Origin: Medicago truncatula
Lineage: Eukaryota > Streptophyta > Magnoliopsida > Fabales > Fabaceae
NCBI RefSeq assembly: GCF_003473485.1
Contig: NC_053042.1
Coordinates: forward strand, 10,808,501-10,872,500
Length of the DNA: 64,000 bases
Direction: 5' to 3'
In this document: piece by piece, positions 9,207-58,808 of the stretch
Position numbering within the stretch: the stretch's first letter is position 1
Layout: each line of letters begins with the position of its first letter
The notes under the pieces: generated by a model
Told to the model about the DNA's origin: nothing
What the model saw: the letters and a program-made list of their open reading frames with translations, nothing else
Database searches by the model: none
Position numbers and translations under genes: made by a program

Positions 9207-10854
9207 TTTTTACTTTAAATACATTATTATTTTCACTATGGACAAAAAAAATCACTATGTCAAACACAGCCGAGACGCGACACACGGCGGAGCCGCGGCG
9301 AAGCCGCACTACCCGCGCTGTAGCACGAGTATCTCGACTAATTCTTTCAAATAAAAAATTACGAGAACTATAATGCTAATTTCCTAAATACCACTTCTAA
9401 ACATGTCATGAGGCTACCTATCAACGTGGACTACACTTTAGGAGTTCATTTTTCAATCAAACATTAACACACATACTTAGAATATTTCTTCGTTATTGGT
9501 CTCAACTTTATTCACTAATTTTGTCAAATGCTATGAGCCTATGATGAAATATTACCTAATTAGTTCAAAATTTACTTTAACTAACTTGGAAATATATAGA
9601 TTATTAAAGAATAATGGAAGTTTGATTTTGAGCTAAATCACTTTTCAACTACTCCCAATTATAGAAACGAATGGTGAAATTTAGTGCGTTTCACATTTAA
9701 GTCAAATTCGATGTCATTTCACGTGCTTACAAATGGCATATATACCATAGAAATTTCTTTTGAATCTTTGAATCTCCACCTTGATTACCGTTGTAGCATC
9801 TTTGAAAAGATAAGAAAACCAAACCAAACTCTTGACATTAAAAAAAATGGCAATTGGGACCTCAATTTGAGGTTAATAGCATGGTTGTTGAAAAACAAAA
9901 CATTAAACAAAGACATTGCCAATAACAAGTAGCAACTATATATGTTTTTTTTAGAGGTAGTAGCAACTATACTTGTTCTAATAATAATATTTCAACTCCT
10001 CCAATTAACAAACTACCAACTTACATTTACCCATGAGAAAAACTATGCTTGTTTTAGTTTGTATATAAATAAAGTATCATAGCATGCGGTTGTTAGAAAT
10101 AAACTTCACAAAATAATTGAGATTAATTTATTTATTTTTTATAATATTTGAGATTAATTAAAAGGACTTGTTTCTCATATTAGATATATTTTTATAACTA
10201 ACTGTTTGTGACTTCTAGGGAACCTAAATCCCTTAGGTGAAGCATCATATTGAATTGGATGAACATAAAAATTCGAGGTGGTCAAATCATCACACTAGAT
10301 TAAGTAATTAGACCGTGAGTTTGGACACAACATCATCACTTAAAATCTGAAAACATTAAATATATAGGTCCTCTCAGTTATATGTTGTTCAAGTTCTATT
10401 TTTTCATCTAATATGGAACGTCGTACTCACACTTCTTCGGCTTGAAAGTCACACCTAATTGGTTGTTCAATTATTTTATAGATAAATAACAGTTTTTTTA
10501 CTTATTTGTCCTTTAGGAAAGCGAAATGCTACTTAGTATAGTGTTTAGTTTAGGTACTTTGTCAAAAATTTGTCTGGTTTTCAAACTTTGCCTTATTTAT
10601 TTGACCATGGAGCCAAAAATCTACAACAACCCATACAAATACACAACCATGTCATTATCTCACAACCACCAATTCACATGTAAATGTTGCACCTTTGGTT
10701 CTTTGTGAGCATTACCCGGAACAACAAAATTTGACTTGTTAAGTATATTGTTATCATTACTTAATAAATTTGCTAGCTCTTTAGTGCTTCAAACAAGTGA
10801 GAAACCAAACTCAAATTTTTGTTACCATATTTTGTGTAGTTTTACATTCTAATA
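9207..10854. other. Intergenic, including a GC-rich patch
   Basis: No gene is supported. The stretch at about 9265-9335 is strikingly GC-rich for this window and contains GCGGAGCCGCGGCGAAGCCGC, an imperfect palindrome; its origin is unknown. The rest is AT-rich and is presumably the promoter side of the downstream DUF4228 gene. Confidence 0.4.
9928..9971 (-). mobile_element. Micro-insertion with 13-bp flanking repeat
   Basis: AGTAGCAACTATA at 9928-9940 is repeated at 9959-9971 around the 18-bp filler TATGTTTTTTTTAGAGGT. On the minus strand this reads as a few bases followed by oligo(A), like a severely truncated LINE/SINE insertion. Confidence 0.55.
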
Positions 10855-13248
10855 ATGGGAAATAGTTTAGGTGGAAAAAAATCCACAAAGGTGATGAAAA
10901 TTGATGGTGAAACATTCAAGCTAAAGACACCGGTGAAAGCCGGTGAAGTGCTTAAGGATCACCCTGGTCTTGTCTTGTTAGAATCCGAGGAAGTGAAGCA
11001 TTATGGAGTTAGAGCAAAACCATTGGAAGCACACAAAGAGTTGAAGCCAAAAAGACTCTATTTTCTTGTGGAACTTCCAAAGGAAAGTCGGGTTACAAGA
11101 AGGGTTCGTTCGGTGATTAATATGAGTGCTAAAGACAGACTCGAGAGTCTGTCTTTAGCTCGAAGGTCAGCTTCTGACCTTACGATTATGAAACCAATGA
11201 ACGACTTTGAGGTGGGAAAAGAAGATTTGACGAATGGCGGGGTGAGGTTGAAAATGAGACTTCCAAAGGCAGATGTTGAGAAGTTGATGCAAAGTAGTAA
11301 AGATGAGGGTGAGGCTGCCGAGAAGATTATGAGTCTTTGCATGGCTAATGGTAATAATGATAAGAAGATGAAAAAGGAAATGCATTGGAAGGGTAGCAGA
11401 GGAGTTGGTGAATACAAAAAGGCTTATGAGGTATGATAGAAGAAACAATATAATGTTTTTGTTTGTTTTTCATTTTGAGCAAAGAGAACGGTTAATCTCC
11501 AAAAGTTATTTCCATTTTTAAAAAGACTAAACACGTTTAGTGTTTTAAAGGATAAAATATATAACGTTTTCATACAAGTTTTTGGATAAGTAGTTGGAAT
11601 CACATAGGAAGTTAACATAATGTTGAATCATTTGATCGACTTTATGTTGAATCTTAAAGCATTAATTTTGTTTTTAATATACATACTAAAACTTCTTCTT
11701 CTTTTTTTTTTATAGAGGAAATACATACTAGAATTTAAGTTTTATTTTCTTAAAATATTTTTAACTTTTCATACCTCATATTATTCAAACTATCTATAGA
11801 TATTACAAAAACCATTTAAAATAAAAATAATGAATACATGTGCAAAGAAGAAAGTTAGAGTTACTAACAAACACAATCTTTTTAACGCTCTCTTTTATCG
11901 GATAAAATTGTGTTGTACCATCCATCATTTCATGAGAAAAATATATCACATCAAATAAATGTTACATATCACCAAGACCCTTTGCTTATCGTGAGACAAC
12001 CTATTGAACCAGGTGTTGAGACGAATTTCAAATATATCCATATAAATGTAGTTTTAATTTAAACAATAACAATATGCTATAATACAACTTGCAATGTATG
12101 TTTTGTTTTAAAAAAAAAGTGTATGTGTGTAATTTATTAGATCAACAATGGTCGACACATAACATTTCTAATATAAGTTATGACATATTATGCTGAAATT
12201 GTAGCTCTATATCAACTATTCAGAATAATTTTTCTTATCAATGATCATCTTACTTGCTTATTTGACCATCATTTAGAGAGGGAGTGGATGACGATGAGTC
12301 TATGATGTTAAATGATACTCCCTCCATTCCTTTTCTTTTGATGTTTTAGCTCTTGATACAAGTTTTAAGGAGCAATTAAAGTATATAAATATTTGTGTGT
12401 TTTTTACTTAAATGTCCTTATTTATCATTAAATTCAGATGTGATAAACCAAAGGTCACAACTACTTTAATAGTTTATTGTGTTTTCCAACAAGGGTAAAC
12501 TTGAGAAAACAATAATAAATTCACTAAAACATCAAAAGTTTTAGAATATAGTTGAAGTTCTAAAACATTAAAAGAAAAGGAATGAAGGGAGTAATATAGA
12601 TCGTACAAATTTTGCATAATTTAATTGTAAAGATAATATTTAAATGGATGTTTATCTTGATTCTTTTATTTTTATCAATGGAAAATTGTGCCAACTAACT
12701 TGTGACCGAACGAACATATATGTAACTGTGAAGCATCAGAAAATCATCTATATGTCCATTTATGTTTTCATAAAAAAATTGTGCCAACTAACTCGTGACA
12801 TATTATTTATATATATACACACACACACTACATGTGAAGCATCATAAAGTCATCATATACCACGAATTATTATTATTCTATACATTTTCACTTAGCATCG
12901 TATATACTAACTCTCATCCTCTCCCTCTCTAAATGTTGGTCCTGCAGAGGATAAGATTCATCCATATAGATACTTTTTTTTACAATTTTTTATTTATTTA
13001 GAGTTGATTGCTATTATTAATGAAAAAGTGGGTGAGAAAATAAATACCTCTATTCATAAACAATCATGCATGCATTATCTAAACAATTTGTAGGTATTAA
13101 ATCAAATCAACATGCATGATTAATGATTAGAATATATAGTTTGAACCTACTAAATTGTTTATTTTTGGATTATTATCAACACTTGCAGAGAAGAGTGAGT
13201 TTTATGCCAATCAATGAAGGAAGTTGTTCGATATCTGTAGCTTCCTAA
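10855..13248 (+). CDS. DUF4228/PADRE-domain protein (At1g66480-like), two exons
   Basis: Exon 1 is 10855-11430 and exon 2 is 13189-13248, giving 211 aa. The protein opens MGNSLGGKK, a likely N-myristoylation site, followed by VMKIDGETFKLKTPV and AGEVLKDHPG, the hallmarks of the DUF4228 (PADRE) family. These are mostly small stress- and pathogen-responsive plant proteins of unknown biochemical function. The serine/arginine-rich middle (MSAKDRLESLSLARRSAS) also matches this subfamily. I place an intron after GCTTATGAG at the donor GTATGA; reading through it ends the protein two codons later. The acceptor TTGCAG at 13188 continues in phase 0 with RRVSFMPINEG...SVAS-stop, a C terminus that fits the family. 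The 1758-bp intron holds a Stowaway MITE, a micro-insertion and a tandem duplication. The alternative is an intronless 193-aa protein ending at 11436. Confidence 0.78.
11679..11733 (-). mobile_element. Micro-insertion with 13-bp flanking repeat (one mismatch)
   Basis: ATACATACTAAAA (11679-11691) recurs as ATACATACTAGAA (11721-11733) around a 29-bp filler that reads, on the minus strand, CCTCTAT followed by an A-rich run. It lies in the intron of the DUF4228 gene. Confidence 0.45.
12318..12591. mobile_element. Stowaway-type MITE (Tc1/mariner)
   Basis: A 274-bp element in the DUF4228 intron. The terminal inverted repeats begin CTCCCTCCATTCC on the left and CTCCCTTCATTCC on the right, match over about 30 bp, and are flanked by TA on both sides (12316-12317, 12592-12593). 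The termini and the TA duplication are the Stowaway signature. No coding capacity. Confidence 0.9.
12682..12865. repeat. Tandem duplication, about 95-bp period
   Basis: AAATTGTGCCAACTAACT followed by a GTGAAGCATCA block occurs twice within the DUF4228 intron. Confidence 0.7.
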
Positions 13249-58655: not shown

Positions 58656-58767
58656 TGACACTATTGATATTTATAAAAAATATTTAAAAAGATACATAAG
58701 TTAATGATCGCATCTATTTTGATGATTTTTTATTTTTCTTTTATAACAAGGTTTAGAAGGAATATAT

Positions 58768-58808
58768 AGTAACCATCTACGTTTTTTTTAAAGAGTAACC
58801 ATCTACGT
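58768..58808 (-). mobile_element. Micro-insertion with perfect 15-bp flanking repeat
   Basis: AGTAACCATCTACGT at 58768-58782 and 58794-58808 brackets TTTTTTTAAAG, only 11 bp. Confidence 0.65.

What the first reader, a model, noticed from the sequence alone, without database searches (positions are those of the whole stretch)
9928..58808. Window-wide set of micro-insertions: a few bases plus oligo(A) between 8-18 bp direct repeats
At least twelve sites show the same plan: 9928, 11679, 13516, 27187, 33263, 36609, 42415, 42714, 46918, 47835, 49565, 51356 and 58768. At each, a direct repeat of 8-18 bp flanks 8-29 bp, made of 3-10 unique bases and an oligo(A) (or, on the other strand, oligo(T)). 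The unique bases recur between sites: TCCCTC before the A run (27187, 49565), CCTTC or CCTCT-like (42714, 33263, 9928, 11679), CCTT (51356, 36609). One filler (TGTTT plus A, 13516) equals the end of the LINE-like sequence at 55097. The simplest reading is target-primed reverse transcription that copied only the last bases and the poly(A) of a LINE or SINE transcript, so most events would escape TE annotation.
Basis: partly seen in the sequence, partly recalled or inferred. Interest (0 to 1): 0.78.

Follow-up and report, generated by a model that had tools for sequence, protein, structure and literature searches.

The report
Tiny abortive LINE-type insertions
A plant genome carries many tiny insertions, each just a few bases plus a short run of A between copies of a duplicated target site, which look like reverse-transcription events that stopped almost as soon as they began and that ordinary repeat annotation would probably not see.

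Summary
Ten of 13 listed sites are clean: target copy, 4-11 base filler, oligo(A), target copy. Two (11679, 49565) are weak; 36609 belongs to a high-copy repeat. In 264 kb (window plus 20 spaced 10-kb pieces) 33 of 1,267 A-runs have such flanks with 3-12 base fillers; permuted flanks give 0-1, mirrored text 12, 7 of them mirror-only. For 13-40 base fillers real and mirrored counts are close (18, 13). Empty sites prove insertion: at 51356, 19 of 20 other repeat copies fetched lack duplication and filler; the twentieth has its own insert, opposite in orientation, at the same 15-bp target. At 42415 two tandem paralogues are empty. Genome-wide, TTTGTC-A10 occurs 2,047 times against 113 backwards and YYCCYY-A8 9,112 against 1,067. 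Of the first 21 TTTGTC-A10 places, 11 are micro-insertions. TTTTGTC-A is also the 3' end of a high-copy family (1,417 candidate places, 40 scored). Best reading: target-primed reverse transcription aborted about 5-6 bases past the poly(A). The source of the CC-rich fillers, and whether that family is a LINE, are not shown.

The parts
9928..9971 (-). micro-insertion: 13-bp target duplication, filler ACCTCT, A8, CATA
11679..11730 (-). possible micro-insertion, 10-bp duplication, TTCCTCTAT-A10 plus GAA-rich stretch (weak)
13516..13562 (-). micro-insertion: 16-bp duplication, filler TGTTT (as the LINE-like 3' end at 55097), A10
27185..27234 (+). micro-insertion: 16-bp duplication (1 mismatch), filler TCCCTC, A7TAAAA
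33263..33302 (-). micro-insertion: 9-bp exact duplication (14 with a mismatch), filler TTTCCTCCTTC, A10
36609..36646 (-). same plan, but part of a high-copy repeat and shared with the paralogue at 37147; not a local event
42415..42445 (+). micro-insertion: 8-bp duplication AAACTTTG, filler CTTTCAACC plus A; empty in two tandem paralogues near 47640 and 54420
42713..42758 (-). micro-insertion: 15-bp duplication, filler CCTTC, A7TATA
46917..46955 (+). micro-insertion: 12-bp duplication, filler TTGCAC, A9; a diverged counterpart lies in the paralogue near 53855
47835..47881 (+). micro-insertion: 14-bp duplication, filler (TT)TGTC, A-run; same string as the family X 3' end
49565..49610 (+). possible micro-insertion, A+T-rich 18-bp duplication with one mismatch, TCCCTC-A, overlapping a 39-bp tandem repeat (weak)
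51356..51399 (-). micro-insertion: 15-bp duplication AATATAGTTTGCATT, filler TCCTTAT, A7; 19 of 20 other fetched copies of the host repeat are empty
58768..58808 (-). micro-insertion: 15-bp duplication, filler CTTT, A7
52449..52913 (+). diverged copy of family X (1,757 candidate places, 40 scored), whose better-kept copies end TTTTGTC-A: likely source of the TTTGTC fillers
46267..46403 (-). second diverged copy of the family X 3' end
55094..55546 (-). 3' part of a LINE-like family ending TGTTT(C)-A (415 candidate places, 40 scored)

Best explanation
These are target-primed reverse-transcription events of a non-LTR (LINE-type) machinery that stopped almost at once. An endonuclease nicks an A/T-rich target, and the exposed 3' end primes on the poly(A) of a transcript. 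The enzyme copies a short A-run (about 6-16) and then only about 3-12 bases, mostly 5-6, of the transcript's 3' end. The second strand is cut, mostly 12-18 bp away, and the gap is filled. The product is target copy, filler, A-run, target copy. Shown: insertion (empty sites), strand polarity of the A-run, short filler, genome-wide excess of particular filler-A strings, and agreement of one filler class with the 3' end of a high-copy family. Inferred: the enzyme, the priming step, and the reason for the early stop.
For: Polarity 28:6. 33 real hits against 0-1 permuted; 28 real-only against 7 mirror-only. Empty sites at 51356 (19 of 20 copies) and 42415 (2 paralogues). Filler of 5-6 bases in 14 of 23 not selected by filler and in 21 of 37 in a set that includes TTTGTC-selected places; duplication 12-18 bp in 34 of those 37. 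TTTGTC-A10 2,047 against 113, TTCCCTTC-A8 87 against 9, YYCCYY-A8 9,112 against 1,067. Of the first 21 TTTGTC-A10 places on C1 (20 stretches), 11 are micro-insertions with filler 5-10, 2 carry family X body, 3 lie in another repeat, 5 are unresolved. Four of 26 hand-collected fillers end TGTC, simulated P=5e-5 (post hoc).
Against: No source was found for the CC-rich fillers; among the 22 other fillers recurrence is only mildly above random (P=0.017). Family X was not shown to encode reverse transcriptase or endonuclease, and 25 of its 40 best pieces begin at one query position, so a fixed 5' border, unlike a truncated LINE, is not excluded. The A-rich start of the target copy is partly forced by the A-run, so the endonuclease motif is not proven. 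The pyrimidine excess is absent before A-runs of 12 or more (4 against 5 and 0 against 3). No other accession could be compared.
Confidence: 0.85

Rival explanations
1. Same start (priming on poly(A)), but the filler is not copied RNA: the reverse transcriptase or a repair polymerase adds 5-6 untemplated, purine-rich bases to the cDNA end, seen as pyrimidines on the A strand. It could hold for the CC-rich class while TTTGTC is templated.
For: Narrow filler length and pyrimidine bias (T 69, C 53, A 11, G 5 outside the TGTC class); many different pyrimidine fillers; no source found for them.
Against: TTTGTC recurs (P=5e-5), is 18-fold enriched over its backward control and is the 3' end of a high-copy family; TGTTT matches the LINE-like family at 55097.
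Confidence: 0.3
2. Repair of staggered double-strand breaks: fill-in makes the duplication, and a captured poly(A) RNA or DNA fragment supplies the filler, with no element endonuclease.
For: Plants are known for filler DNA at breaks (recalled; only a search listing was seen). Identical target boundaries for opposite orientations (51356 and L050) fit one staggered cut used either way.
Against: The A-run is beside the 3' target copy in 28 of 34; duplication length clusters at 12-18 bp; the same targets are hit repeatedly.
Confidence: 0.1
3. Ordinary LINE/SINE copies later reduced by internal deletion to their ends.
For: Longer copies with the same 3' end exist (L071, L078).
Against: Fillers cluster at 5-6 bases, with no clear polarity at 13-40; repeated precise deletion up to the 5' target copy is not expected.
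Confidence: 0.03
4. Chance matches in an A+T-rich genome, or replication slippage.
For: Base composition about 68% A+T; 7 mirror-only hits show a background of unrelated direct repeats.
Against: Permuted flanks give 0-1 against 33; empty sites; 8- to 18-fold string asymmetry.
Confidence: 0.01

Closest known systems
5'-truncated L1 insertions (human; PMC2912911, passages seen, parts of the abstract among them; PMC12016303, passages with Table 1 seen)
   Same: poly(A) at the 3' end, target duplication (peak 14-16 bp for full-length L1), truncation at the 5' side
   Different: detected human L1 insertions have medians of hundreds of bases or more (394 somatic, 1240 germline) and tails of median 38; here fillers are 3-12 bases and tails about 9, though the search required 6 or more A's
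Plant LINE/SINE copies, e.g. maize (PMC2774510, passages seen)
   Same: poly(A)-ended SINEs sharing LINE 3' ends; severely truncated LINEs are mentioned there as something to tell from SINEs
   Different: one screen there anchored on the last 30 bases of LINE consensus, so inserts of 3-12 bases would not have been seen by it
Tandem-duplication insertions from patch-type break repair in rice (recalled, not read)
   Same: short direct duplication at the site
   Different: as recalled, no A-run, no recurring filler, no strand polarity
Poly(A)-seeded microsatellites of retroposon origin (recalled, not read)
   Same: A-runs with flanking repeats from retroposition
   Different: as recalled, there the A-run follows a recognisable element

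Membership tests
L1-type target-primed insertion | A-run at the 3' end, next to the 3' target copy | tested here: met
   28 of 34 against 6; 28 real-only against 7 mirror-only
L1-type target-primed insertion | target duplication of about 10-20 bp, absent from the empty site | tested here: met
   12-18 bp in 34 of 37; empty sites at two of the window's sites, other sites not tested or shared with paralogues
L1-type target-primed insertion | endonuclease motif TT/AAAA | tested here: inconclusive
   first base of the target copy is A in 81% of 37, second in 57%, but the A-run biases this; the 51356 target reads ATT/A at both cut positions
L1-type target-primed insertion | insert ends with the 3' end of an element | tested here: inconclusive
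   met for TTTGTC and one TGTTT; no source for CC-rich fillers
L1-type target-primed insertion | source element encodes reverse transcriptase and endonuclease | tested here: inconclusive
   frames upstream of family X copies in the window and L035 looked at by eye only; no longer copy could be fetched
SINE | tRNA- or 5S-derived promoter body | tested here: not met
   fillers are 3-12 bases
Filler-DNA break repair | no fixed strand polarity of the filler | tested here: not met

The most novel reading that the evidence does not exclude
In this genome a very common outcome of LINE-type integration, perhaps the commonest, is not a truncated element but a separate abortive product: cDNA stopped within about 12 bases of the poly(A). 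It would occur tens of thousands of times per genome, without a continuum into somewhat longer truncations, and fall repeatedly on the same target sites. Such events would be a main, unannotated source of short indels, short duplications and A-runs.
Probability: 0.45. Interest if true: 0.78.

Novelty: new variant of a known kind. Interest (0 to 1): 0.62.

Why it matters
If right, many small plant indels of 20-40 bp with a duplicated target are retrotransposition scars, not replication or repair errors. Extrapolating 22 hits in 200 kb (before subtracting 6 mirror-only) to 430 Mb gives about 47,000; the 17 kept give about 36,000. That would change how small indels and LINE activity are counted. 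It also gives a dense record of where a LINE-type endonuclease cuts and where its reverse transcription fails, so the question of why LINE copies are truncated becomes directly testable.

Tried and rejected
A first mirror control allowed fillers of 2 bases and re-found real insertions backwards; replaced. A scan for longer TSD-poly(A) elements with gaps of 46-7000 gave 44 against 36 mirrored and is mostly noise, so longer insertions were not counted from it and the ratio of micro to long insertions rests only on the 21 TTTGTC-A10 places. Site 36609 was dropped as a local event. Family X could not be shown to be a LINE: open frames upstream of the window copies and of an L035 copy gave nothing decisive by eye and were not searched in Pfam; the stretch L035:8500-9225 proved to hold another repeat of about 180 bp. 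Telomere repeats (CCCTAAA) were considered as source of the CC-rich fillers by eye only; the fillers do not fit. mRNA 3' ends were considered but not tested. In one search, 7 of 44 rows were dropped by rules set by eye (tandem or low-complexity repeats) before lengths were counted; the 37 kept still hold 36609, two doubtful rows (L022 with a 12-base filler, L032 with a 3-base filler) and two inserts at one target in L073. The 26 fillers were collected by hand; 36609, 11679, 49565 and several doubtful rows were left out, the TSD-side T's were added to one TGTC, and the test was post hoc. The flank-swapping null has a 99% level of 14.7 and a maximum of 40.8, probably from the related L070 and L072. 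Literature searches listed nothing that I could see to describe this class (three of them listed nothing at all); most subscription papers are not in that library.
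Full report
Where it is. The window is C1:10808501-10872500 of an unnamed 429.9-Mb genome in 42 contigs. Eight large contigs of these sizes fit Medicago truncatula A17 (recalled, not tested). Frames seen include leucine-rich repeats (27849-29168), a Bet v 1 family gene (41996-42346) with tandem paralogues, a copia-type frame and a LINE fragment with zf-RVT and RVT_3.

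Observation. Reading the 13 places on the strand that carries the A-run gives the plan target copy, filler, A-run, target copy clearly at ten of them. Two are weak and one (36609) belongs to a high-copy repeat. An orientation-blind scan for direct repeats in the window plus twenty spaced 10-kb pieces (13 on C1, 7 on C2; 264 kb) found 134 repeat pairs. Of these, 34 have an A- or T-run of 6 or more in the gap; the A-run is nearer the 3' repeat in 28 and nearer the 5' repeat in 6 (p=2e-4). Starting instead from all 1,267 A-runs of 6 or more, 33 have a matching flank pair (score 18+) with a filler of 3-12 bases. With downstream flanks shuffled among A-runs the counts were 0, 0, 1, 0 and 0. The same text read backwards gave 12; five are real insertions seen from behind because their tails are impure, and seven are mirror-only, two of these being one repeat in L023. 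For fillers of 13-40 bases the counts are 18 real, 13 mirrored and 0-2 permuted: there are direct repeats of that spacing, but without clear polarity. So the polar excess lies at 3-12 bases; lengths above 40 could not be judged.

A test without target duplications. In the same 264 kb, an all-pyrimidine 5-mer with at least one C lies before A-runs of 7-11 in 63 cases and after them in 13 (at least two C: 42 against 5). For A-runs of 5-6 it is 89 against 48, for 12-16 4 against 5, for 17+ 0 against 3, so the signal belongs to short A-runs. Of the 63, 19 have a flank match scoring 18 or more, two of them doubtful and one the 37354 paralogue of 36609. Over the whole genome, with the tool's own backward control, YYCCYY-A8 has 9,112 places against 1,067, TTCCCTTC-A8 87 against 9, and TTTGTC-A10 2,047 against 113.

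Empty sites. Site 51356 lies in a dispersed repeat (196 candidate places, 40 scored). Of 20 further copies fetched, 19 have one copy of AATATAGTTTGCATT or a close variant and no filler. The twentieth (L050) has an insert of its own, ATATTGTTC-A7, in the opposite orientation and between copies of the same 15-bp target. Exactly two places in the genome have that exact target twice at 4-34 bases spacing: the window and L050. At 42415, the tandem paralogues near 47640 and 54420 have a single AAACTTT where the window copy has AAACTTTG, CTTTCAACC, A-run, CTTTG; a fourth paralogue near 61100 stops matching short of the site. At 46918 the paralogue near 53855 has a diverged form of the same insert, and at 36609 the paralogue at 37147 has the same insert, so those are probably older than the duplications. 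The other sites were not tested for empty copies.

Source of one filler class. The first 21 TTTGTC-A10 places listed on C1 were read in 20 stretches. Eleven have a target duplication above the 99% level of a flank-swapping null, with fillers of 5-10 bases and no shared body. Two (L071, L078) share a body ending in TTTTGTC-A. Three (two in L070, one in L072) lie in another repeat, and five are unresolved, one of them (L068) just under the cut. The L071/L078 body, family X, has 1,417 candidate places; all 40 scored matches (one is L078 itself) extend past TTTGTC. A pattern joining its TGAATGAAT motif to TTTGTC-A10 has 102 places on the reverse strand and 185 counts on the forward strand, where overlapping matches are listed twice, so roughly 200 of the 2,047; backward control 0. 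The window holds two diverged copies, at 52449-52913 and 46267-46403. TTTGTC micro-insertions are therefore best read as the last 5-10 bases of family X. What family X is remains open: 25 of its 40 best pieces begin at the same query position, which a randomly truncated LINE would not do unless the window copy itself is broken there. The filler TGTTT at 13516 matches the LINE-like family at 55097, whose copies end TGTTTC-A or TGTTT-A in most of those seen. No source was found for CCTTC, TCCTT and TCCCT.

Anatomy. In 23 insertions not chosen by filler, 14 fillers are 5 or 6 bases long, the range being 2-10. In 37 kept of 44 (a set that includes 10 rows from TTTGTC-chosen places), fillers are 3-12 bases with 21 at 5 or 6, target copies are 12-21 bp with 34 at 12-18, the last filler base is C in 22, T in 14 and G in 1, and filler letters are T 124, C 63, G 21, A 19. 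The target copy begins with A in 81%, which the A-run partly forces.

Repeated use of a target. L030:232-339 has four copies, one partial, of GCTATCCATGATATT with three different inserts, one of them inverted. L073 has three copies of (AA)CATAGTTATACTTTT with TTTGTC-A13 and ATCCTTC-A7 inserts. Together with 51356 and L050, this suggests that cut positions are set by local sequence and are regenerated by the duplication (inference).

How it most likely works. Nicking, priming on poly(A), copying of the A's and 3-12 further bases, a second cut 12-18 bp away, and fill-in. The polarity, the duplication, the empty sites and the filler match are shown; the enzyme and the early stop are inferred. Why copying stops so early is unknown. 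A block at the border of poly(A) and 3' end, or a switch to second-strand work as soon as the enzyme leaves the A's, would both fit.

Compared with what is known. Human L1 copies share the A-tail, 14-16 bp duplications and 5' truncation (PMC2912911, passages), but detected insertions there have medians of 394 and 1240 bases (PMC12016303, passages with Table 1). A maize survey mentions severely truncated LINEs while anchoring one screen on the last 30 bases of LINE consensus (PMC2774510, passages). In the ten literature searches made I saw no listing that describes a discrete class this short; that is not proof of absence.

Limits. The 200-kb sample is 20 of the 100 pieces planned and covers only C1 and the first half of C2. 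No other accession was available. Family X was not shown to be a LINE. The extrapolated genome total (about 36,000-47,000) rests on 17-22 hits.

Noticed in passing
L030:232-339: Four copies (one partial) of one target with three different A-tailed inserts, one inverted: repeated micro-insertion at a single site.
   Followed up: partly
L073 (C1:921830-922010): Three copies of one target with a TTTGTC-A13 and an ATCCTTC-A7 insert in a row.
   Followed up: partly
window 36400-36900: Part of a repeat with 1,215 candidate places; the 40 scored are 89-100% identical and some lie in tandem units of about 550 bp; type not determined.
   Followed up: partly
window 41400-41770: Element with long inverted ends (AAATATGCAAACCGTCCCTGTAATTTGAGCGCATT and its complement) at the end of a LINE frame: looks like a MITE (by eye).
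   Followed up: no
window 40234-41436: LINE fragment with zf-RVT and RVT_3 (RNase H-like) domains.
   Followed up: partly
window 41996-42346, 47241-47680, 54046-54460, 60775-61180: Bet v 1 family gene (first place) and its tandem paralogues by DNA similarity; useful for empty-site tests.
   Followed up: partly
window 4357-8950: Long frames, one of which (6361-7722) has copia-type RVT_2 and SH3_retrovirus domains.
   Followed up: no
L035:9215-9440: A SINE-like insert (ends GATGCCAAGTTTT-A15) with duplication AACGTAGATGTTGT inside a family X-like stretch.
   Followed up: no
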